Assembly: GCA_019637075.1 (NCBI GenBank)
Contig: JAHBWI010000004.1
Coordinates: 310,001 to 374,000, forward strand
Length of the DNA: 64,000 nt
Reading direction: 5' to 3'
Origin: Nitrospiraceae bacterium
GTDB lineage: Bacteria; Nitrospirota; Nitrospiria; Nitrospirales; Nitrospiraceae
Below the pieces are notes generated by a model. It was given only the letters and a program-made list of their open reading frames with translations, was not told where the DNA came from and did no database searches. How positions within the stretch are numbered: the first letter of the stretch is position 1; each line of letters begins with the position of its first letter. The translations under genes were made by a program, and so were the position numbers. This document shows, piece after piece, positions 50,438 to 61,439 of the stretch.

Positions 50438-50515
50438 GGTCCCATCGTCTAGCCTGGCCTAGGACGGAGCCCTCTCAAGGCTCAGACACGGGTTCGAATC
50501 CCGTTGGGACCACCA
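50438..50515 (+). tRNA. tRNA-Glu(CTC)
   Basis: A 78-base cloverleaf: acceptor GGTCCCA pairs with TGGGACC, anticodon loop CTCTCAA gives CUC, T arm contains GGTTCGAATCC, CCA encoded. A tyrosine recombinase gene begins immediately beyond, pointing to this tRNA as an integration site. Confidence 0.93.
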
Positions 50516-50544
50516 CCTTGAAATTGTTGAAGATTTTCCTTCCC

Positions 50545-50576
50545 GGTTTAGGGAACTTCCGAATGTTCCTTAAACC
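50545..50576. terminator. Hairpin between tRNA-Glu and integrase
   Basis: GGTTTAGGGAAC at 50545-50556 pairs with GTTCCTTAAACC at 50565-50576 (one wobble), followed by AGTTTT. It would terminate tRNA-Glu transcription; the integrase remnant's stop codon (50570) lies inside it. Confidence 0.6.
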
Positions 50577-51536
50577 AGTTTTCGCTCCGTGATCGTCGTG
50601 CTCAGCAATCGGTTCGCGCGTTCCTCGTAAAATCCCACCGTGTGTTTCAACTGCGGCGGACGAATCCGCGCGTAGATTTGCGTCGTATCGATGCGCGCGT
50701 GACCCAAGCGCGCGCACCTCTTCGAGATCATGATGCTGTGCGTAAACTTCCATCGCCACACCATGACGCAGGTCATGGGGCTTCAGCATGGGCGCGCCGA
50801 TCATGCGGCCATAGACTTTCGCCAGCCGCCAGATGTTTTTTCCCGTCATCGGTTGCCGGGTTTTCCCCGTGCCGCGACGCTCCCAGCTCGACCAGAACAA
50901 CGGCGTCTCCGCTTCTACGGGAATCCCGAGCCGACTGACGACCTGTTCGACGTAGCCCCACAGGAACTGCATGACTGCCAAGGGTAACGGAATGTCGCGG
51001 GTGCGGCCGCCTTTGACCGTCACCCCGCGCAAGCCCCAGTTTTCGTCTAAATGCCGCAGGCGCAACGTCGCGACCGATTCTCGGCGCATCCCTGAATACC
51101 GCAGGATCAGGAAGATCGCCATGTCGCGTGGCCGTTGCCGCCGCCTGGCTGCATCAATCAGGGCATCCATGAGGGATGCACTGGGCACTTGCCTCGGCGG
51201 CTCTGACCGATGCGGTGGGCGGTCCAGCTTGGCCACGGGATTGCTCACCAGCAGGTCCCGTTTCACCAGCCACCCGCAGAGGCTGGAGAGTGTCGCCTGT
51301 CGGGTGCGCATCGTACTTAAGGCCAGATCATTGGCGGCCATGTCGTCCATCCATCCTTGAATGGTCTCCGTCGTGAGATCCGTCACGCGGGCCTTGCGCC
51401 CCATCTGTCGCCGCACGAACCGAAGAAATTGTTCCAACACCCAGCGAGAGGCTCCCACCCCTCCTTTCGTCCGACCCCGCTGTTTGAATTGATACAGACA
51501 AAACTGCTCCACCAGTTCGACTAAGGGCTGTGTCAT
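50570..51536 (-). pseudogene. Frameshifted tyrosine recombinase
   Basis: A phage/ICE-type integrase cut by a one-base frameshift. From MTQPLVELVEQFCLYQF (51536) the frame carries the N-terminal SAM-like domain, RYSGMRRESVATLRL (catalytic Arg), VKGGRTRDIPL (Lys) and HDLRHG (His, Arg). Near 50706-50716, in a GCGCGC run, the frame shifts; the adjacent frame resumes with LGHARIDTTQIYARIRPPQL, holding the last catalytic His and nucleophile Tyr, and ends at 50570. Either the gene is inactivated or the run contains a sequencing error. The unshifted frame runs into tRNA-Glu instead. Confidence 0.85.
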
Positions 51537-51661
51537 GCCATGGCCTTTCTGGCCCCGCCCACAGCCATGGTTTCGCCGGGCAGCAGTATGGGGAGGGATG
51601 ATCCAGGCGTCAAGCGGGGCTGGCACAGAAAAGGCGGTGAAGGGCAGATCGGGTTCTGGAG

Positions 51662-52750
51662 TCATGACGGCAGCGAATCGGGGGAGTCTGGCGACATCCC
51701 CGCACCCCCGCCCTTGCGCCCGCGTGGGACGCCGGCGTCTTCAGCCGGATGCGATGGCTCATTCCGAGCTCGCGGCGGTTTCTTCATGGTCCCTCGCTTC
51801 ACGAGCTTGCGATGCCGGTCTCTCCACCGGTCGGCCCCGGTGACGATGGCCTCCTTCATCCATTGCTCCCCTTTCGGGATCGCACAGAGGGCGGCCAGCA
51901 TCGGCGCCACCGATCGCGTGACCCAGGCTTTGACTTTGTCCACGTCCGGTTCCGGTTGGGAGACCGTAAGGCGAGCCGATTTGAATCCTTCGGTCAGCAT
52001 CTCGTACCAAGCAACCCTTGGGGCTCGCGCTCGCGCTTCTTCCTCAGCCTCGCGGGTCGTCTCTCGAAAATCGACATATGACCGCAGCAGGCCGACAACG
52101 GATTCCTTCCAATCGGTTTCGTCCAGATTCAGCAGCAATCGCGCACAGAGATCGGCTCGGTCCTGCTTGAACTCCAATTCCCAGCGGACCCCATACTGTT
52201 CCGCGTCCGCATGTTTCTTAGCCAGCAATTCGAGCCGTTTGTCATAGACCCGCAAGAGTGTTTGGCTCTGGGGACTGCCGACGTACATTGTGGCTCCATA
52301 GGTCGTGCCCTTGTGCAAGGAAAAGGACCGGATGACTTGCGCGCGATCCGCCCGGGTAATGCATTGCCCGGCCTCTGCCGCGGTTTGGATCACGTCGAGC
52401 GCGACCAGAGGCCGACGATCATCCAGCGCACAGTCCACTCGCGTGATGTGGCCTCGCTGTTGAATAATCCAACGCAGCATGTCGCGCACCCGGCCTCGTT
52501 CCCAGGCGGAGACGATCCCCGCGGAAAGATCGACATGGACCTCTCGCGGTTGTCGAGGCGCGCCTGTTCCGAGGAGCCCTATCCCGGCACCGGCGTTCCA
52601 GAGCCATGACAGGGGATAGCCCCGAAACCCTGCCTTGCCTCGTGTCCAGTCTCCGCCGAGTGCCGCCATGACGATGTGCGCGGTGCTGTCCGGGACGGTG
52701 AATGCCAACCAATCGATGGTGAGTGTGAAGGGTTCTGGTTGTACGGTCAT
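51662..52750 (-). CDS. Replication initiation factor (Rep_trans-like)
   Basis: A 362-residue protein similar to rolling-circle initiators of filamentous phages and integrative elements. Signature-like parts are TIDWLAFTVPDS, GGDWTRGKAGFRGYP, HITRVDCALDDRRPLVALDV and LLRVYDKRLELLAKK (the Y-D-K-x-x-E motif). The C-terminal ~40 residues are basic and disordered. It abuts the integrase remnant on the same strand, so the two make a minimal integrative element. The start is set at 52750 (MTVQPEPF); GTG at 52765 is possible. Confidence 0.78.
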   Translation of the reverse strand: MTVQPEPFTLTIDWLAFTVPDSTAHIVMAALGGDWTRGKAGFRGYPLSWLWNAGAGIGLLGTGAPRQPREVHVDLSAGIVSAWERGRVRDMLRWIIQQRGHITRVDCALDDRRPLVALDVIQTAAEAGQCITRADRAQVIRSFSLHKGTTYGATMYVGSPQSQTLLRVYDKRLELLAKKHADAEQYGVRWELEFKQDRADLCARLLLNLDETDWKESVVGLLRSYVDFRETTREAEEEARARAPRVAWYEMLTEGFKSARLTVSQPEPDVDKVKAWVTRSVAPMLAALCAIPKGEQWMKEAIVTGADRWRDRHRKLVKRGTMKKPPRARNEPSHPAEDAGVPRGRKGGGAGMSPDSPDSLPS

Positions 52751-52778
52751 GGCGCTATGCGTCACGATGTCAGCCGAG

Positions 52779-52936: not shown

Positions 52937-53339
52937 CCCTATGTGAACGCGTCGGCTCAGTAAATACACCGCGAGAGGTCACGACAGGACACTAGGGGAC
53001 AACAGCGGACAATATTTCATCATCGACCAGTTCAGTGAGAAGAAGCTGGAGATTTGAAGGCGTGCCAATCGCCGCGTCGATGGCTGCGTTCCGAAGCTTC
53101 GCCGTCGCGTGATCGATGATTACCCGTGCAAGAAAGACCGTGCAGTGTGTGATCCTTCAAAAATCTTTTGGATCTATCCCGCCTGACGAATGGCCCTAGT
53201 CGCGTGGAACATGCCGGGAGACAGTGGCTATGGAGAGTCACTAAGCCTATGTACACTACGATAGGGCCATAATCCGTCTTGTGGTTTCCTCGCACAACGT
53301 GTAGAAGCCTGCGCGGTCACACCCGAAGGGAGGTGCTGG

Positions 53340-56300
53340 TTGCGAGACACGCATCCGCAGCGACTCATGACACGGCTTCCACGTCCCCTGTCTCTCGTCG
53401 CCAGCCTTCTCCTCGCTCTCACGGTTTCCCCTCCCGGTCTCTTTCAACTCACCACTCTATCTCTATACGCACAGCAACTGGACCCTCCGAAACCCGCTCG
53501 CGTCGTCACTGGTCAGGTCCTGTCCGCGCGCGACAAGAAACCGCTCAAGGATGTGCCGGTTCGTTTAGGCAGCAAGACGGCGAAGACCGACGACCGCGGG
53601 CTCTATCGATTCGTGAATCCGGCGGCAGGCGATCAGTTAGTGGCGGTCGATCCGACCTGGCTCGCCGGCAAGCGACAGAAGCTCTCTGACGGCACGCTCA
53701 CCGGCGCCTTTCATGCCGATCCAGTCATGGTGGACGTCGCCGCCGAAGGCGTCACACAGGCCAAGGCGCCGATTTTCGTGATCGAGCCGGCGAAGAAGAG
53801 TCATCAGTTAAGCTCCGGCAAAGCCGTCACCATTCAGCCGGCTCACATCCCGGATCTCATCGTGACGATTCCCGATGGCACGACGATTGTCGGTCCCGAT
53901 GGCACACCGCAGACGGAGTTGACCGTCACCCAACTGTCACCGGACCGAGTGCCACCGTTACCGGAGGATACGGCTCCGAGGAGCGTGTACCTCTTCAGTT
54001 TCGAGAAGCCCGGTGGCGGCACCCCGTCCAAACCCGTGCCAATCATCTACCCCAACGATCTTGGGGCCCCGCCGGGCGAACGGATCGACCTCTGGTACTA
54101 CGACAAGACCGACCGGCCCGACAGCCAGTCCCATCAGTGGAAGAAGTATGGGCAGGGGACAGTGAGTCCCGATGGCAAGACGATCGTGCCGGACCCCGGT
54201 GTGGGGCAACCGAAGTTTTGTGTGAGTTATCCCACCTGGCCCAATTTCACCTATCCGAACCTGGGATTCATGACTGCTGGCGATCCCGTCGATCCGTCTT
54301 CCGGCGTGTTGAGCATCGAAAAGACCGATCTCGTCTTGTCCGGGGTGCTTCCTATTGCCATCGTGCGGGCCTACCGCACGCAAGCCCAAGGGGTCGGCGC
54401 ATTCGGGATGGGAGGAGAGTTTAATTACAATCTCTACCTCTCAGGCATCGGCACGGCCGCGCTCTCCCTCCTGATGCCCAACGGCAACCGCTATACGTTT
54501 TCGCAAGAAGCAGACGGGTACTTCCGGAACCAGAACTATCCCTTCCTCAAAGGCGCCCGCGCCCAGGTCTTCCCCGACAGTCATGTCGAGATCCGGTGGA
54601 AAGACGGGATGGTCTATGTGTTCAGTCAGGCCTCGGCCGGCGCCGCCTGGCTCATGCAGCAGAAGGACCGCTACAACAACTCAATCACCATCACGCGAAG
54701 TCCGCTGAACCAACGAGTCGACAGCATTGCGGATCAATACGGCCGCACGCTCAAGTTCGGTTACACCACCACGGCCAACCAGGCTGGCTCGGCGCTCATC
54801 ACGTCCATCACCGACCCAATGGGACGGACGGTCGGCTACCAGTACGATGCCCTCCACCGCTTGAGCACGATCACTGCTCCCGACGGCGGCGTCACCATCT
54901 ACACCTACGAGGTGAACAACCGCCTAACCACGATCACGGACGCCCGAGGCATTACCTATCTGACGACACTCTATTATCCGAGTGGCCTGGTGGCCAAGCA
55001 GATCCTGGCGGACGGCGGGACCTATCGATTCGAATACACGCTGGCGGGATCGACCATCACCCAAGCCAAGGTCACCGATCCCCGCGGCAACCCCACGACC
55101 TATACCTTCAACAACTATCAGTTCGTGAGCCAGATCGATGCCCCGGGGCAAACGACGCAATTCCAGTTGCAGTCGGGTACGAACTATCTCACGCAGGTCA
55201 CCGACGCGCTCGGCCGGACCACCGCCTATACCTACGATAGCAACGGGAATGTGGCCTCGATCACCGATCCGGAGAACAACACCACGAGCTTCCAGTACGA
55301 GCCGACCTACAGTCGGCTCACGCAGATCACCGATGCGATGATGCCGGCCAACATCACGACCTTTGCCTATAACGACGTGGCCAGGACCACGACGATCACC
55401 AACCCACTCAACAAACAGACCGTGATTCAATACAACACGGCCGGCCGGCCGACCAGCATCACCGATCCCCTGTCCCATGCGACGACCTTTGAATACGACT
55501 CGTTCGGCAACCTCAAGGCCACCGTTGATGCCCTGAACAACCGTACGGAGCGAACCTACGATGCGATCTCCCGGTTGGTCGGGATCAAAGATCCACGCGG
55601 CTTTGTCACCACCTTTCGCTACAACAGCGCCAACCGGGTTCGCTTGATCACAGATGCCAAGAATGGGACGACGCAGTTTGCGTATGACCTGAACGGCAAT
55701 CTCCTCACCGTGACCGATGCCAAGAGCCAGACCACAGCGTATACGTATGACCCAATGGATCGGCTGGCCACCCGCAAGGACGCGCTGAATCGGCAGGAAA
55801 GCTATCAATACGATCTGGCCGGCAATCTCACGCAGTTCATCGACCGCAAGAATCAAACGACCACGTTTGCCTATGACGCATTGAACCGCCGGACTGGTGC
55901 CACCTATTCCGATGCGACCGTGACCTTTGGTTACGACGCGATCAATCGGCTGACGAGCGTCAACGATTCAGTCAGCGGCACGGTCTCCTGGACCTACGAT
56001 ACGGTGAGCGGCGGGCACCATCCCCGCGTGCTGGAGACCACCACGCCGGGAACCGTGACGGTCGAATACGATGAAATCGGGCGACGGGCGAAACTCTCGG
56101 CCACCGGCCTGACCGATGCCACGTATGCCTACGACAACAATTCGCGCCTGACCGGTGTGACGCAAGGAACGCAGGCTGTCACCCTGGCCTACGATGATGC
56201 CGGACGCCGAACCTCACTCACCTATCCGAATGGCGTGGTCACGAGTTATGGCTACGACAATGCCGACCGCCTGTTGACGATCAATCACGTCAAAACGCCA

Positions 56301-57482
56301 ACCACCATTGAGGCCTTAACCTATCAATACGATCCGGCGAGCAATCGAGTCTCATTGAATCGCGCGAATGCCGCCGCTTCGCTCATTCCTACGGCTGTCT
56401 CTTCGAATAGCTACGATGCCGCCAATGAACAGACGCAGTTCAATGGCGTGACACAGACGTTCGACGCGAACGGCAACCTCACGAACGATGGAACGAACAC
56501 CTATACATGGGACGCTAGGAATCGACTGACAGGAATCTCCGGAGGCGTGACGGCAAGCTTCGTCTATGATGGACTGGGCCGACGGAAGAGTAAGACAATC
56601 GGTGGCACGACGACGGGATTTTGGTATGACGGCAACGACATCCTAACAGAGCTGAGCGGTGGGACGCCCTCGGCCACCTACATTCGTGGCCTCAGCATCG
56701 ATGAACCGTATATCCGAAAAGGGGGCAGTGATGAATTTTACGAAACGGATGCACTGGGGACATCCGTAGTGCTGACTAATGCCGCAGGTGCCGGCCAAAC
56801 GACGTACACGTATGAACCGTTTGGCAAGACTACTCAGGCCGGAACGGCGAGTACCAATTCATTCCAATACACTGGGCGTGAGAATGATGGGACAGGGCTT
56901 TACCAATACCGCGCCAGATACTATGGGCCAATTCCTCTACGCTTCAACTCTGAAGATCCATTTTTGTTTGGTAGTGGCGACGCAAACTCATACCTTTACG
57001 CTCTAAATAATCCCCTCAAATATACCGATCGCCGAGGATTATTCGTCGATACGCTACTGGACGTGGCATTTATCGGCTACGACATCTATAGCCTCGTGAC
57101 AGGTGGTCGGAAAGACTTCAAGAACAATCTTACTGCACTGGGGCTTGATATTGTCGGAGCTGTTCTTCCTGGCGTGACCGGCTTGGGGATGGTGGTCAGG
57201 GCAGAGAGAGAAGTTGCCATTGTATCGAAAGGGCTTGGGAATGTTGCTGGGGGCGCAACGACAGTAGAAAGCGCATTAGTGCATGGAGAAAAATGGCTTG
57301 GGCCAGGTTACAGAGAAATAGCGCCGGGTGTATTTCGATCCGCTGATGATACAAGACAATTTAGAATGACTACTCGTGACTTAACTGATCCGATACAAGG
57401 GCCGCACGTTCATTTTGAATCCATTGGGGCGAATGGTCGAACCATACTGGAAAGCTCCCATGTCACAATAATCAATCCTTAA
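53340..57482 (+). CDS. Secreted RHS-repeat protein with toxin-like tip
   Basis: A 1380-residue polymorphic-toxin-like protein. The TTG start is preferred: AGGGAGG is six bases before it. A Sec-type signal (LSLVASLLLALTVSP) is followed by a carboxypeptidase-regulatory-like beta domain (VTGQVLSARDKKPLKDVPVR), a DUF6531-like entry (GDPVDPSSGVLSIEKTDLVL) and more than 20 YD/RHS repeats (such as YQYDALHRLSTITAPDGG). The core ends RARYYGPIPLRFNSEDP, LNNPLKYTDRRGL, where the usual DPxG is DRRG. A hydrophobic pretoxin segment and a ~70-residue tip with GPHVHFE follow. The last ~550 bases are AT-richer than the core. It is paired with an immunity candidate eight bases downstream. Confidence 0.85.
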   Translation: MRDTHPQRLMTRLPRPLSLVASLLLALTVSPPGLFQLTTLSLYAQQLDPPKPARVVTGQVLSARDKKPLKDVPVRLGSKTAKTDDRGLYRFVNPAAGDQLVAVDPTWLAGKRQKLSDGTLTGAFHADPVMVDVAAEGVTQAKAPIFVIEPAKKSHQLSSGKAVTIQPAHIPDLIVTIPDGTTIVGPDGTPQTELTVTQLSPDRVPPLPEDTAPRSVYLFSFEKPGGGTPSKPVPIIYPNDLGAPPGERIDLWYYDKTDRPDSQSHQWKKYGQGTVSPDGKTIVPDPGVGQPKFCVSYPTWPNFTYPNLGFMTAGDPVDPSSGVLSIEKTDLVLSGVLPIAIVRAYRTQAQGVGAFGMGGEFNYNLYLSGIGTAALSLLMPNGNRYTFSQEADGYFRNQNYPFLKGARAQVFPDSHVEIRWKDGMVYVFSQASAGAAWLMQQKDRYNNSITITRSPLNQRVDSIADQYGRTLKFGYTTTANQAGSALITSITDPMGRTVGYQYDALHRLSTITAPDGGVTIYTYEVNNRLTTITDARGITYLTTLYYPSGLVAKQILADGGTYRFEYTLAGSTITQAKVTDPRGNPTTYTFNNYQFVSQIDAPGQTTQFQLQSGTNYLTQVTDALGRTTAYTYDSNGNVASITDPENNTTSFQYEPTYSRLTQITDAMMPANITTFAYNDVARTTTITNPLNKQTVIQYNTAGRPTSITDPLSHATTFEYDSFGNLKATVDALNNRTERTYDAISRLVGIKDPRGFVTTFRYNSANRVRLITDAKNGTTQFAYDLNGNLLTVTDAKSQTTAYTYDPMDRLATRKDALNRQESYQYDLAGNLTQFIDRKNQTTTFAYDALNRRTGATYSDATVTFGYDAINRLTSVNDSVSGTVSWTYDTVSGGHHPRVLETTTPGTVTVEYDEIGRRAKLSATGLTDATYAYDNNSRLTGVTQGTQAVTLAYDDAGRRTSLTYPNGVVTSYGYDNADRLLTINHVKTPTTIEALTYQYDPASNRVSLNRANAAASLIPTAVSSNSYDAANEQTQFNGVTQTFDANGNLTNDGTNTYTWDARNRLTGISGGVTASFVYDGLGRRKSKTIGGTTTGFWYDGNDILTELSGGTPSATYIRGLSIDEPYIRKGGSDEFYETDALGTSVVLTNAAGAGQTTYTYEPFGKTTQAGTASTNSFQYTGRENDGTGLYQYRARYYGPIPLRFNSEDPFLFGSGDANSYLYALNNPLKYTDRRGLFVDTLLDVAFIGYDIYSLVTGGRKDFKNNLTALGLDIVGAVLPGVTGLGMVVRAEREVAIVSKGLGNVAGGATTVESALVHGEKWLGPGYREIAPGVFRSADDTRQFRMTTRDLTDPIQGPHVHFESIGANGRTILESSHVTIINP

Positions 57483-57489
57483 GACCTCT

Positions 57490-57843
57490 ATGCGTCTAAT
57501 TGCGCGCGTAATCGGAAATTTGGAGCACCTTAAAGTCAAACATTATGAGGGCCTCCCTCCAGATTTGACTGCAGGCAAAGATCTTCGAAAGGAAATGAAA
57601 GCGCCCGCAGTTGTGGTGATCGAAGATCATCGGGATGGAGTATTTCTGTATCGGTACGATGCTGAAGCCAATTGTGTTGGTGACACCTGGCACCAAGATC
57701 TTGATGAAGCTAAAGACCAGGCGTGGTTCGAATTCGAGAGTATCCTTTCCGAATGGGTCGAAATTCCGCTTAGCATACAAGGCGTTCATCAAGTCGTTCA
57801 ATTTGGACTTAGCCTCTTTCTAGACAAAACCTCAGGGCAGTGA
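57490..57843 (+). CDS. Candidate immunity protein
   Basis: A 117-residue acidic soluble protein (KAPAVVVIEDHRDGVFLYRYD, WHQDLDEAKDQAWFEFES, then VEIPLSIQGVHQVVQF). No family recognised. It starts eight bases after the RHS gene, in the same direction, and shares its low GC, which is the position and base composition of an RHS cognate immunity gene. The pairing is inferred, not shown. Confidence 0.6.
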   Translation: MRLIARVIGNLEHLKVKHYEGLPPDLTAGKDLRKEMKAPAVVVIEDHRDGVFLYRYDAEANCVGDTWHQDLDEAKDQAWFEFESILSEWVEIPLSIQGVHQVVQFGLSLFLDKTSGQ

Positions 57844-58008
57844 ACGGCTTCATGAAGACCAAGATAGAAAATAGTTCTCGGCGCGAAGTGTATTATGAGA
57901 ATCAATCAAGTAATTGACCGGCAAATCAGCAAATTTGTGTAGAGTCTGGAGCGGAAGAACCGAAAAAGATAAAAGTGACCCATGACAGCTGCACGGAGTC
58001 ATGAATCC

Positions 58009-58950
58009 ATGGGGTGTCCACCTTCTTTACATCTACTGGCTACTTATTGCCTCGCTCTCTTCCTTCCTATCGCGGCACTAGCCGATACAGCTGAGTATTT
58101 CTACGATGAACTCAGCCGTCTGATCGGCGTCGCCGACGGCAACGGTGTGACGGCTGTGTACAATTACGATGCCGTCGGCAACCTCACGAGTATCGATCGC
58201 TTTACGCCGCCTGGGAGCGGCATCGGCATCTATCTGGCCGCACCGGGCAGCGGTCCAGCCACGACCCAGGTCACGATTGAAGGCTACGGATTCGATCCAA
58301 CCCCGGCCAACAATACGGTGCAATTCAACGGGACCGCCGCGACGGTCAACTCTGCGTCTGCCAACACGTTGGTCGTGTCCGTGCCCACAGCCGCCACGAC
58401 CGGCTCCATCACGGTGACCAATGCAAACGGCACGGCGACCAGTCCACAATCGTTTACGGTGCCCGCCTTGCCGACCGTGACGAGCGTCGACCCGGTGACC
58501 GTTCCACCGGGCGCCGCCAGCGGCGTGCAGATCACCGGGACCAATCTCCTGAACGCGACGGCCGTGACCTTTACGCAGGGAGGGCTCAGTGCTTCCATTC
58601 GTGACGGCGGCACCGCGACGACGCTCCCGATCAGTTTCACGGTGGCCTCCTCGGTTCCAGCCGGCAATTATGCTTTCACGGTGACGAGTCCGGCCGGGTC
58701 AGCGTCCAGCGGCTCGGTCACGATCGGCGTGAGCAGTGCCAACAAACTGATTTACAGCACCGGCCCGCTGGTGAGCGTGGCGATGCCGCTCAATGCCACC
58801 GTGCTGCCGTTCCTGTCTCCGTCCGGCTGGAGCGTGACCGTGGCCCCGCCGACCAGCGTCCAGGCCCCCTATCCAGATGTCCCGGCGACCAAAGCGCCGT
58901 CGGGTTGGAGCATCACGGTGGCACCGCCAACGAGTACCTCCATGCCATGA
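58009..58950 (+). CDS. RHS-remnant/TIG-domain secreted protein
   Basis: A 313-residue protein with a signal sequence (LATYCLALFLPIAALA). It opens with one-and-a-half YD repeats (YFYDELSRLIGVADGNGVTA, YNYDAVGNLTSIDRF), then two IPT/TIG-like Ig domains (ATTQVTIEGYGFDPTP; GVQITGTNLLNATAVTFTQ). The C-terminus repeats PSGWSVTVAPPTS and PSGWSITVAPPTS 28 residues apart. It starts 165 bases after the immunity candidate. Function likely surface or adhesion related; unrecognised beyond domains. Confidence 0.7.
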   Translation: MGCPPSLHLLATYCLALFLPIAALADTAEYFYDELSRLIGVADGNGVTAVYNYDAVGNLTSIDRFTPPGSGIGIYLAAPGSGPATTQVTIEGYGFDPTPANNTVQFNGTAATVNSASANTLVVSVPTAATTGSITVTNANGTATSPQSFTVPALPTVTSVDPVTVPPGAASGVQITGTNLLNATAVTFTQGGLSASIRDGGTATTLPISFTVASSVPAGNYAFTVTSPAGSASSGSVTIGVSSANKLIYSTGPLVSVAMPLNATVLPFLSPSGWSVTVAPPTSVQAPYPDVPATKAPSGWSITVAPPTSTSMP

Positions 58951-58964
58951 GGAGGCTCAAGACG

Positions 58965-60161
58965 ATGAAGAAAACTCGCATAGGCTGGCGGCACCTCTTT
59001 CTCCTCCCGACCTTGTGTCTGGTATCTCCGTTTGCCGCCCATGCCTTCGACACCGGGAGCACCGGTGCGCTCGGTGCCCTGGCGCCGGTTTCGAACACCG
59101 TCATCACCCTGCCGCCAGACGGCATCCTGAACTACACCACGGTGAATATCCCGGGCGGAGTGACCGTCAGCTTTACCCGCAACGCCGTGAATACCTCGGT
59201 GATCCTGCTCGCGCAGGGCGACGTGCTCATCAACGGGACCATCCACGTCAACGGCAGCAACGGCCTGGCGGCCAATCCGTCGAGCCTGAATGCCGGCGGC
59301 CTGGGCGGCCCCGGCGGCTCTCAAGGCGGCAATGGCGGCATGAAGGGACTCGGCAACACGATTGGCTCACCAGGTCAGGGGCCGGGCGGCGGGAACGCCA
59401 CGCCGCACGGAACCTACGGCACGCTCTATGGTGGGCTCAATGACTTTCGCACTCTGATTCCCTTCTTCGGCGGCTCCGGCGGAAACGGCGGGACTGGCAC
59501 CACGACCAATTTCGGACCGTCGGGTGGCGGTGGAGCCGGCGCGCTGATTATTGCCTCCAACACGAAGATTACGGTCAGCGGCATCGTGCGGGCGAACGGC
59601 GGTGATTCCGGCGATTGCTCTGCGGCGGGTGCGGGAAGCGGCGGCGCGCTTCGGTTCGTGGCACCGGAGTTCAACAACACGGGCACCATCGAGTCGCGTG
59701 GCGGCTGCGCGAGCCAAGGCTTTGGCCGGGTGCGATTGGAGTACCAAACCTCTCCCAGCGGCATCGGCACCCCTTATCCCTCGCCCTACACCTCCAATAC
59801 TCTTGGGCCGCTCACCGCGACGAGCACGCCGACACTCACGAATGTGCCCACGGTCTCGATTACGGCCGTGGGTGGCACCAGTGCGCCCGGCACGCCCGGC
59901 GGCTCGTTCACGACCCCGGATGTGTCGCTTTCTGCCCTGACCACAAATCCGGTGCCGGTCACAGTGACGGCGACCAACACACCGGTCGGGAGCGTGTTTC
60001 AGATCCGCGTGATCCCGCAATTCGGGCCACTCCTCACGGTCTACACGACCATGTCCACCGGGACCTTTGCCAGTTCCACTGCGACGGCCAACGTGATGTT
60101 GCCGGTGGGAGTAACCAGTCTCCTCGATGTCTATGGCAGTTACTTGCTGGTCGGCCCGTGA
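58965..60161 (+). CDS. Glycine-rich secreted protein A
   Basis: A 398-residue exported protein. The start has GAGGAGG eight bases away and lies 14 bases past the previous stop. A signal peptide (LFLLPTLCLVSPFAAHA) is followed by a conserved block (GSTGALGALAPVSNTVITL, DGILNYTTVNIPGGVTVSF), a glycine-rich middle (for instance GGLGGPGGSQGGNGG) and a C-terminal Thr/Val/Pro-rich beta part. The same block appears in the next gene, so the pair arose by duplication. No catalytic motif. Confidence 0.75.
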   Translation: MKKTRIGWRHLFLLPTLCLVSPFAAHAFDTGSTGALGALAPVSNTVITLPPDGILNYTTVNIPGGVTVSFTRNAVNTSVILLAQGDVLINGTIHVNGSNGLAANPSSLNAGGLGGPGGSQGGNGGMKGLGNTIGSPGQGPGGGNATPHGTYGTLYGGLNDFRTLIPFFGGSGGNGGTGTTTNFGPSGGGGAGALIIASNTKITVSGIVRANGGDSGDCSAAGAGSGGALRFVAPEFNNTGTIESRGGCASQGFGRVRLEYQTSPSGIGTPYPSPYTSNTLGPLTATSTPTLTNVPTVSITAVGGTSAPGTPGGSFTTPDVSLSALTTNPVPVTVTATNTPVGSVFQIRVIPQFGPLLTVYTTMSTGTFASSTATANVMLPVGVTSLLDVYGSYLLVGP

Positions 60162-60194
60162 GGGCCACAGGACTCATAACCAAAGGGCACAACC

Positions 60195-61439
60195 ATGATG
60201 CGAACCATCTGGGCGCTCGCGATGCTTCTGGGCACCATCCTCGTGGGTCAGCCTGCTGTCTGGGCTCAAGCGTTCAGCAGCGGCAGCACCGGGGCGTTGG
60301 GGGCGCTCAACGCCACGACGAATCAGACGATCACGCTGCCCGCCGACGGAATCCTGAACTACACGACCATCACCGTCGCCGCCGGCGTGACCGTCCAGTT
60401 CACCGCCAACACCTTAAATACGCCAGTGACGATGCTGGCGACCGGAGATGTGACCATCAATGGCACCATTGCGTTGAATGGCCAGGCTGGGGCTGGAGGT
60501 TCCAGCACGGGCGCGGCAGTATTAGCCGGAGGGAACGGGGGACCCGGCGGCTACCGCGGGGGCAACGGCGGCTCTCGCGGGGCCACCAATAATACGGGAG
60601 CTGGAGGACAAGGCCCGGGTGGCGGCAACGTCGCCGTGACGGCCTTCGGGGTCTGGGGGGTGCCGGGCTATTCCGCCGTTGTCAATCTCTTGCCACTCTT
60701 TGGCGGCTCGGGTGGCGGGGGCGCAGTGGGGAATGGCACCTATTCCGGGAGTTCTGGAGGTGGGGGAGGCGGTGCCATCGTGATTGGCTCGACCACGCAG
60801 ATCACGATCAGCTCCACCGGCGCCATTACGGCACTTGGCGGGGATGGAGGCGTGGGCCAGCAAGGCTGCGGGACCAGTTACGGTGGCGGTGGCAGCGGAG
60901 GTGGGATTCGTCTGGTCGCGCCCAAGATCACGAACCTAGGGAATCTTCAAGCGACCGGCGGGAGCACGGCCTGCAGTCCAGCCACCGTGAATGCTGCCGG
61001 CCGCATTCGTATCGAATCGCACGTGACCGGGACCATTTTGAATACGAACCCGACGGCATCCATCGTCACCTCGCCCGGTCCGATCACGGCCGCAAGTCGT
61101 CCGGCCCTGATCAATCTGCCCACCCTTGCGATCAGCACCGTCGCGGGCGTCAGTGCCCCGGCCAACCCGGGCGGGTCCTACACGACCCCCGACGTGACGC
61201 TGCCGCCCGGCACGGTCAATCCGGTCAGTGCCGTTACCGCGGAAACCAATACGCCGGTGCCCGGCAGCCCGGCCACGACCGTGTGGATGAAGGTGTTGCC
61301 GCAATTCGCCGCACCGACCACGACGAGCACGACCACGCTCACCGGCACGTTCGCGAACTCGACCGCGACGAATTCGGTGACCCTCCCGAACGGTGTCACC
61401 AGCGTCTTGCAAGGCTACAGTGCGATGTTCCTGCCGTAA
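60195..61439 (+). CDS. Glycine-rich secreted protein B
   Basis: A 414-residue paralogue of the preceding protein. After the signal (AMLLGTILVGQPAVWA) come GSTGALGALNATTNQTITL and DGILNYTTITVAAGVTVQF, then glycine-rich stretches (GGSGGGGAVGNGTYSGSSGG) and a Thr-rich C-terminus. It starts 33 bases after its neighbour, so both with the TIG protein form an operon. A hairpin follows the stop. Confidence 0.75.
   Translation: MMRTIWALAMLLGTILVGQPAVWAQAFSSGSTGALGALNATTNQTITLPADGILNYTTITVAAGVTVQFTANTLNTPVTMLATGDVTINGTIALNGQAGAGGSSTGAAVLAGGNGGPGGYRGGNGGSRGATNNTGAGGQGPGGGNVAVTAFGVWGVPGYSAVVNLLPLFGGSGGGGAVGNGTYSGSSGGGGGGAIVIGSTTQITISSTGAITALGGDGGVGQQGCGTSYGGGGSGGGIRLVAPKITNLGNLQATGGSTACSPATVNAAGRIRIESHVTGTILNTNPTASIVTSPGPITAASRPALINLPTLAISTVAGVSAPANPGGSYTTPDVTLPPGTVNPVSAVTAETNTPVPGSPATTVWMKVLPQFAAPTTTSTTTLTGTFANSTATNSVTLPNGVTSVLQGYSAMFLP

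What the first reader, a model, noticed from the sequence alone, without database searches (positions are those of the whole stretch)
53340..57843. RHS toxin/immunity pair with base-composition shift at the tip
The RHS core is GC-rich, but from about 56,930 onward the tip and the next gene are visibly AT-richer. This is the pattern of recombinational exchange of toxin tip plus immunity cassette. The tip ends in a GPHVHFE-containing domain; the immunity candidate resembles no family I know.
Basis: partly seen in the sequence, partly recalled or inferred. Interest (0 to 1): 0.6.

Follow-up and report, generated by a model that had tools for sequence, protein, structure and literature searches.

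The report
Swapped RHS toxin-immunity cassette
A large bacterial surface protein carries an exchangeable poison tip, probably an RNA-cutting enzyme of the loosely known 'Ntox7' kind, followed by a small, previously uncatalogued gene that most likely protects the producer from it; the swap itself can be seen in the DNA.

Summary
Observation confirmed, with a sharper boundary. GC falls from 0.59 to 0.48 between about 56,825 and 58,095. Two RHS paralogues in the same genome match the window DNA up to 56,824 and 56,930 (84%, 79%). All homology is then lost until 58,096, where the next gene matches again (80-81%). Four paralogous loci hold four unrelated cassettes, each with GC 0.46-0.48, between the same flanks. 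This is tip-plus-immunity exchange.

The tip is an 82-residue domain absent from Pfam and NCBIfam but found in more than eight phyla. Profile comparison ties it to the Imm8-linked toxin domain that fits the published Ntox7 description (predicted BECR-fold RNase).

The 117-residue protein is also in no library. A relative follows a related tip directly in seven other loci (four other phyla). Tips with this immunity class are the nearest relatives of the window tip. In Myxococcota both domains occur fused in one protein. It is therefore very probably the cognate immunity protein. Orphan copies are few.

The window tip keeps all six near-invariant residues but departs at three frequent ones. RNase activity and neutralisation are inferred, not shown. 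New member of a known kind, with a new immunity family and an unexpected fused form.

The parts
53340..57482 (+). RHS polymorphic toxin, 1380 aa; hydrophobic N-terminal stretch that looks like a Sec signal (by eye), weak CarboxypepD_reg domain, DUF6531, 13 RHS repeats, Rhs_assc_core, exchangeable tip; no PAAR domain found
53340..56824 (+). Conserved RHS body, GC 0.59, 79-84% identical in DNA to paralogues L063/L064 of the same genome
56825..58095 (.). Exchanged low-GC cassette (about 1.2-1.3 kb; left edge between 56,825 and 56,930): end of core, pre-toxin linker, toxin domain, immunity gene, intergenic spacer and first bases of the next gene
57042..57233 (+). Pre-toxin hydrophobic linker; its first 59 residues are 58% identical to RHS tips of another genome of the family that carry other toxins
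57234..57479 (+). Ntox7-like toxin domain (82 aa; helix plus beta sheet; AlphaFold2 mean pLDDT 90.5). Conserved S1334, D1336, R1342, H1356, E1360, H1374 (protein numbering)
57490..57843 (+). Cognate immunity candidate, 117 aa, alpha+beta, 'GDTWH...EAK.QA.FEF' signature, 7 bp after the toxin stop
57982..58950 (+). Downstream TIG-domain protein with an RHS-like stretch; the constant right flank shared by the paralogous loci (homology resumes at 58,096)

Best explanation
This is a polymorphic RHS toxin whose C-terminal toxin domain and immunity gene were brought in together as one cassette by recombination between a constant RHS body and a constant downstream TIG-domain gene. The RHS body most likely displays and delivers the tip at the cell surface after Sec export (inferred). 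Inside a competitor the tip most likely acts as a small Ntox7-like endoribonuclease that uses the conserved R, E and H residues (inferred). The 117-aa cytosolic protein binds the tip and blocks it in the producer (inferred from linkage and fusion). Shown here: cassette boundaries, homology of the tip to a widespread toxin family, conserved adjacency and fusion of tip and immunity domains. Step probabilities: cassette exchange 0.95; toxin-immunity pair 0.9; nuclease, most likely RNase, 0.6; tip of this copy still active 0.7.
For: Boundaries against paralogues L063/L064 and four unrelated cassettes with GC 0.464-0.476. One paralogous tip is a recognised toxin, Ntox44 PF15607. Tip relatives at the C-terminus of RHS and other large proteins, or as tip fragments, in many phyla. 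Profile-profile match to the Imm8-linked domain, probability 97.8, E 1e-12, whose motif and partner fit Ntox7 as published (PMC3482391). Relatives are followed by Imm32, E 1e-18, or Imm8, E 3e-36. Relatives of the 117-aa protein follow related tips in L011, L018, L019, L020, L021, L023, L025. In three of those genomes and one plasmid the hit beside the tip is the only hit. Immunity class follows the tip tree: 7 changes against a shuffled mean of 21.4, 0 of 200 as low; the five rows nearest to the window tip all carry this immunity class. Tip-like and immunity domains are fused in Myxococcota proteins.
Against: No toxicity, rescue or binding data. The tip departs from the family at D1337 (G in 31 of 36), D1350 (H in 30 of 36) and S1372 (N in 33 of 37), and sits on a long branch, so it could be weakened. 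Fold search gives only one moderate match, a CDI complex chain at Z 6.2, so RNase activity rests mainly on a published prediction. Orphan immunity homologues exist.
Confidence: 0.78

Rival explanations
1. The tip is a decayed relic: the cassette was exchanged, but this toxin copy has lost activity and the immunity gene is a passenger.
For: Departures at three frequent positions and a long branch.
Against: Open frame is intact; six near-invariant residues (G23, S36, D38, R44, E62, H76 of the domain) are kept; the D-P-[IV]-Q variant at the H position also occurs in L028, and D for G also in L034 and L043; confident fold.
Confidence: 0.2
2. The domain is a toxin but not a BECR tRNase-type RNase: another activity, or a translation-blocking rRNase of the colicin E3 kind.
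For: Best structural match is to a CDI complex chain (5t86_A, Z 6.2, rmsd 3.4 over 74) of unpublished activity as far as the held library shows; no known nuclease was matched clearly.
Against: Homology to the domain that fits Ntox7, predicted BECR RNase by profile methods (PMC3482391).
Confidence: 0.35
3. The 117-aa protein is not the immunity protein but an unrelated or accessory gene that travels in the cassette.
For: Orphan homologues such as L002 beside an IS110-like transposase ORF, L084, L085, L098; no binding data.
Against: Direct adjacency in five phyla (window included), co-segregation with the tip tree and fusion to the tip-like domain.
Confidence: 0.08
4. The AT-rich stretch is not imported; RHS tips and immunity genes simply drift to low GC in this lineage.
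For: All four cassettes of the genome have nearly the same GC, 0.464-0.476, rather than the varied GC expected of varied donors.
Against: Cassettes are unrelated to each other while both flanks stay similar (79-84% for the two closest paralogues), which drift cannot give.
Confidence: 0.05

Closest known systems
Ntox7 toxin domain (Zhang et al. 2012, PMC3482391; MafB and CdiA tips with Imm8)
   Same: Same position at the C-terminus, same size, S-x-D-[GD]-x-R-x-[FY]-R motif, F-E and an x-x-H end; profile match 97.8%, E 1e-12; relatives of the window tip pair with Imm32 and Imm8, both on the published Ntox7 list
   Different: Window tip lacks the G of DGx+xhR and the N; has HVH where Imm8-linked members have QAN; partner is not Imm8, Imm32 or any catalogued family
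RHS and CDI polymorphic toxins with exchangeable tips (PMC3150448, PMC3482391)
   Same: Constant body, variable tip plus immunity gene, breakpoint near the end of the core
   Different: No PAAR domain; seems Sec-exported; constant downstream TIG gene on the right flank
Imm32 (PF15566) and Imm8 (PF15586)
   Same: Immunity genes of the same toxin clan, directly downstream
   Different: No detectable sequence relation to the 117-aa family by Pfam
YxiD/YxxD of Bacillus subtilis (PMC12700104; Ntox50, BECR tRNase with immunity protein)
   Same: Proposed mode of action: small BECR RNase, sterically blocked by a small immunity protein
   Different: Different toxin family and different residues

Membership tests
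Polymorphic RHS toxin-immunity system | RHS repeats and RHS-associated core before a variable tip | tested here: met
   PF05593 x13, TIGR03696 at aa 1158-1234
Polymorphic RHS toxin-immunity system | Tip and downstream gene exchanged as a unit between related proteins | tested here: met
   Homology ends at 56,824/56,930 and resumes at 58,096; four unrelated cassettes
Polymorphic RHS toxin-immunity system | Conserved linkage of tip and immunity gene | tested here: met
   Seven other loci with direct adjacency
Polymorphic RHS toxin-immunity system | Tip toxic, neighbour protein protects | not testable with these tools
   Needs expression and rescue assay
Ntox7 | Sequence homology to the Imm8-linked domain | tested here: met
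   hhalign A3 against A5: 97.8%, E 1e-12; the published alignment itself could not be consulted
Ntox7 | DGx+xhR motif and N | tested here: inconclusive
   Family has it (G 31/36, R 36/36, N 33/37); window reads DDTRQFR and SSH, so strictly it departs
Ntox7 | BECR fold | tested here: inconclusive
   alpha+beta model, pLDDT 90.5; only one structural match stands out, Z 6.2
Ntox7 | Partner from Imm8, Imm31, Imm32, NMB0513 or SuFu (a usual, not strictly defining, feature) | tested here: not met
   No Pfam or NCBIfam hit for the 117-aa protein or its relatives; relatives of the tip do have Imm8 or Imm32
T6SS-delivered RHS effector | N-terminal PAAR domain | tested here: not met
   Pfam finds only RHS_repeat, DUF6531 and a weak CarboxypepD_reg
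Imm8 / Imm32 | Match to the family profile | tested here: not met
   No match for window protein, L021, L025, L002

The most novel reading that the evidence does not exclude
The 117-aa family is a new immunity family for Ntox7-like toxins, and in one order of Myxococcota it and its toxin partner have been fused into single, apparently membrane-anchored proteins: a domesticated, self-contained toxin-immunity pair that may serve as a sensor or a regulated RNase.
Probability: 0.35. Interest if true: 0.55.

Novelty: new member of a known kind. Interest (0 to 1): 0.42.

Why it matters
Ntox7 is a predicted RNase toxin clan that Pfam and NCBIfam profiles do not detect here, and only one paper in the held library names it. 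This locus extends it to more phyla, ties it to a further class of partner, and gives an immunity family that would now be annotated only as hypothetical. The four loci of one genome, with one constant frame and four cassettes, are a clean natural example of tip exchange with both breakpoints visible. The Myxococcota fusions offer a direct test of whether toxin and immunity domains can be kept as one protein.

Tried and rejected
Pfam and NCBIfam for tip, whole tip family and immunity family: nothing. PDB by sequence: only chance-level matches for tip, Imm8-linked and immunity alignments. Foldseek for the tip: weak OspA beta-sheet matches, taken as a common arrangement. Immunity model: best Z 5.3 to pieces of sugar kinases, not meaningful; model only moderate, pLDDT 76. 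Direct genome scan with the immunity protein alone: none confirmed. Phage and viral contig collections: no tip or immunity relatives, so no sign of phage carriage. My first ORF listing missed the immunity ORFs of L018-L020 because of upstream start codons; corrected. The in-frame stops reported for those copies lie at their C-terminal ends, so they are intact. A complex model of tip and immunity could not be run with the tool on hand. The Ntox7 reference protein named in the 2012 paper was not fetched (listed germ); Imm8-linked tips from other bacteria were used instead. Ntox12 and Ntox37 labels considered because of Imm32: no Pfam hit, no alignment on hand, left open.

Full report
What is there. 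The window holds an RHS gene at 53340-57482 (1380 aa) and, 7 bp further, a 117-aa gene at 57490-57843. The RHS protein starts with a hydrophobic stretch that looks like a Sec signal, then a weak carboxypeptidase-regulatory domain, DUF6531, 13 RHS repeats and the RHS-associated core at aa 1158-1234. No PAAR domain was found. GC is 0.59 in the core and 0.47 in the toxin domain and in the 117-aa gene; third-position GC falls from 0.74 to 0.34-0.43 and returns to 0.73 in the next gene.

Cassette exchange. The genome (G000, 4.06 Mb) holds three close RHS paralogues. Against two of them the window DNA is 84% and 79% identical from about 53,250 to 56,824 and 56,930. It then has no similarity until 58,096, where the downstream TIG-domain gene matches again at 80-81%. 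The four loci carry four cassettes of 1.1-1.7 kb that are unrelated to each other, all with GC 0.464-0.476, between a core of 0.58-0.61 and a right flank of 0.63-0.64. One of the other tips is Ntox44 (PF15607, E 1.5e-10). The exchanged segment is therefore 56,825/56,930 to 58,095. It begins inside the end of the core and includes the 117-aa gene and the spacer after it. The first part of the tip (57,042-57,212) is a hydrophobic pre-toxin linker, also found before other toxins in a genome of the same family.

The toxin family. Neither Pfam nor NCBIfam knows the tip. tblastn found relatives at the ends of RHS-type proteins on plasmids of Miltoncostaea and Exiguobacterium and as a fragment in Streptomyces. 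A scan of 84,980 species gave 29 loci, by their record titles in Planctomycetota, Myxococcota, Pseudomonadota, Bacteroidota, Bacillota, Actinomycetota, Acidobacteriota, Chloroflexota, Chlamydiota and Bdellovibrionota, most of them C-termini of long open frames. In an alignment of 37 tips G, S, D, R, E and H are invariant or nearly so, and all are kept in the window. The window departs at D1337 (G in 31 of 36), D1350 (H in 30 of 36) and S1372 (N in 33 of 37). L028 has the same D-P-[IV]-Q form at the H position, and L034 and L043 have D for G. A model built on 28 sequences has mean pLDDT 90.5: one helix, then a beta sheet.

Identity of the toxin. The tip of a Neisseria ORF that looks like MafB and tips of filamentous haemagglutinins of Paraburkholderia and Pantoea, followed by Imm8, carry the motif S-x-D-G-x-R-x-Y-R. 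Zhang et al. 2012 (PMC3482391) define Ntox7 as a predicted BECR-fold RNase with DGx+xhR and N, found in MafB and CDI proteins with Imm8 as main partner and also Imm31 and Imm32. The profile of the window's tip family matches the Imm8-linked profile with probability 97.8 and E 1e-12 over 78 columns. I call the tip Ntox7-like: it works like one by inference, but the window copy strictly departs from the published motif at two letters, so full membership is left open. The same paper lists Ntox12 and Ntox37 as Imm32-linked; without its alignments I cannot exclude that part of the set was filed there. The best structural match is 5t86_A, a chain of a CDI complex of E. coli A0 34/86 (Z 6.2, rmsd 3.4, 74 residues; next 4.4). 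That is suggestive only.

The immunity family. The 117-aa protein has no library match. Relatives lie directly after a related tip in L011 (Actinomycetota), L018, L019, L020 (Planctomycetota), L021 (Pseudomonadota MAG), L023 and L025 (Myxococcota), with gaps of about -1 to 29 bp. In the genomes of L021, L023 and L025 and in the plasmid of L011 the copy beside the tip is the only hit. Other branches of the tip tree carry other partners: a 75-aa family (ten loci) or Imm32 (nine). The partner class follows the tree: 7 changes against 21.4 in shuffles, none of 200 as low. The nearest five tips to the window's all carry the window's class (many inner branches are weak, and near-copies inflate such counts).

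Presence without a toxin. In 395 genomes of the window's phylum the only other close homologue is an orphan beside an IS110-like transposase ORF in G141. In 246 genomes of the phylum of L018 three close solo copies were seen in two genomes (L084, L098, L085) besides the paired one. More distant proteins that share only the DTWH half occur alone somewhat more often.

Fusions. Searching 329 genomes of the phylum of Sorangium (L025) with the immunity profile led to single ORFs in which a tip-like domain is followed by the immunity domain (L080, L081, L083). The tip profile scores 21.4, 13.9 and 11.7 bits there, against 5.7 for the best of 900 shuffles. A search of 183 genomes of that order found six such proteins with both domains detected in four genomes, and two more (L103, L104) in which only the immunity part was detected. 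Hydrophobic stretches before the tip-like part suggest membrane anchoring (by eye). This supports physical partnership of the two domains by an independent route and is the most unusual thing found.

How it most likely works. The RHS body is exported and displays the tip; the tip enters a competitor and cuts RNA; the 117-aa protein binds the tip in the producer. Shown: exchange, family, linkage, fusion. Inferred: export, entry, RNase activity, binding. I hold the pair at 0.9, RNase at 0.6, activity of this copy at 0.7.

Novelty. Tip-and-immunity exchange in RHS genes is established. New here are an immunity family absent from the libraries searched and from the published Ntox7 partner list, the reach of the toxin family, and the fused Myxococcota forms.

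Noticed in passing
L080, L081, L083, L099-L102, L110, L111 (Myxococcota genomes G616, G588, G1140, G1141): Single ORFs with hydrophobic N-terminal stretches, a Ntox7-like domain and then the immunity domain in one polypeptide.
   Followed up: partly
L063, L064, L065 (genome G000, contigs C5 and C1): Three paralogous RHS loci with the same TIG-gene right flank and unrelated cassettes, one Ntox44, followed by genes with lipoprotein-like or membrane-like N-termini; all four cassettes share GC 0.464-0.476, an oddly uniform value for imports from varied donors.
   Followed up: partly
L027, L029, L030, L031, L032, L034, L036, L038, L041, L043: A second uncatalogued partner family of about 75 aa ('VGKIVAGDELGRYIKV...GGFLI') directly after Ntox7-like tips; the one member scanned had no Pfam match above threshold.
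   Followed up: partly
window 50475-52765 (-): Tyrosine recombinase and a Rep_trans replication initiation factor side by side, the look of a small integrated element just upstream of the RHS gene.
   Followed up: no
window 58905-61439: Two adjacent paralogous surface-protein-like ORFs ('STGALGAL...TLPPDGILNYTT', glycine-rich) without Pfam match.
   Followed up: no
L068, L069 (genome G012): Several RHS tips with their own small downstream genes in tandem, the look of orphan cassette arrays.
   Followed up: no
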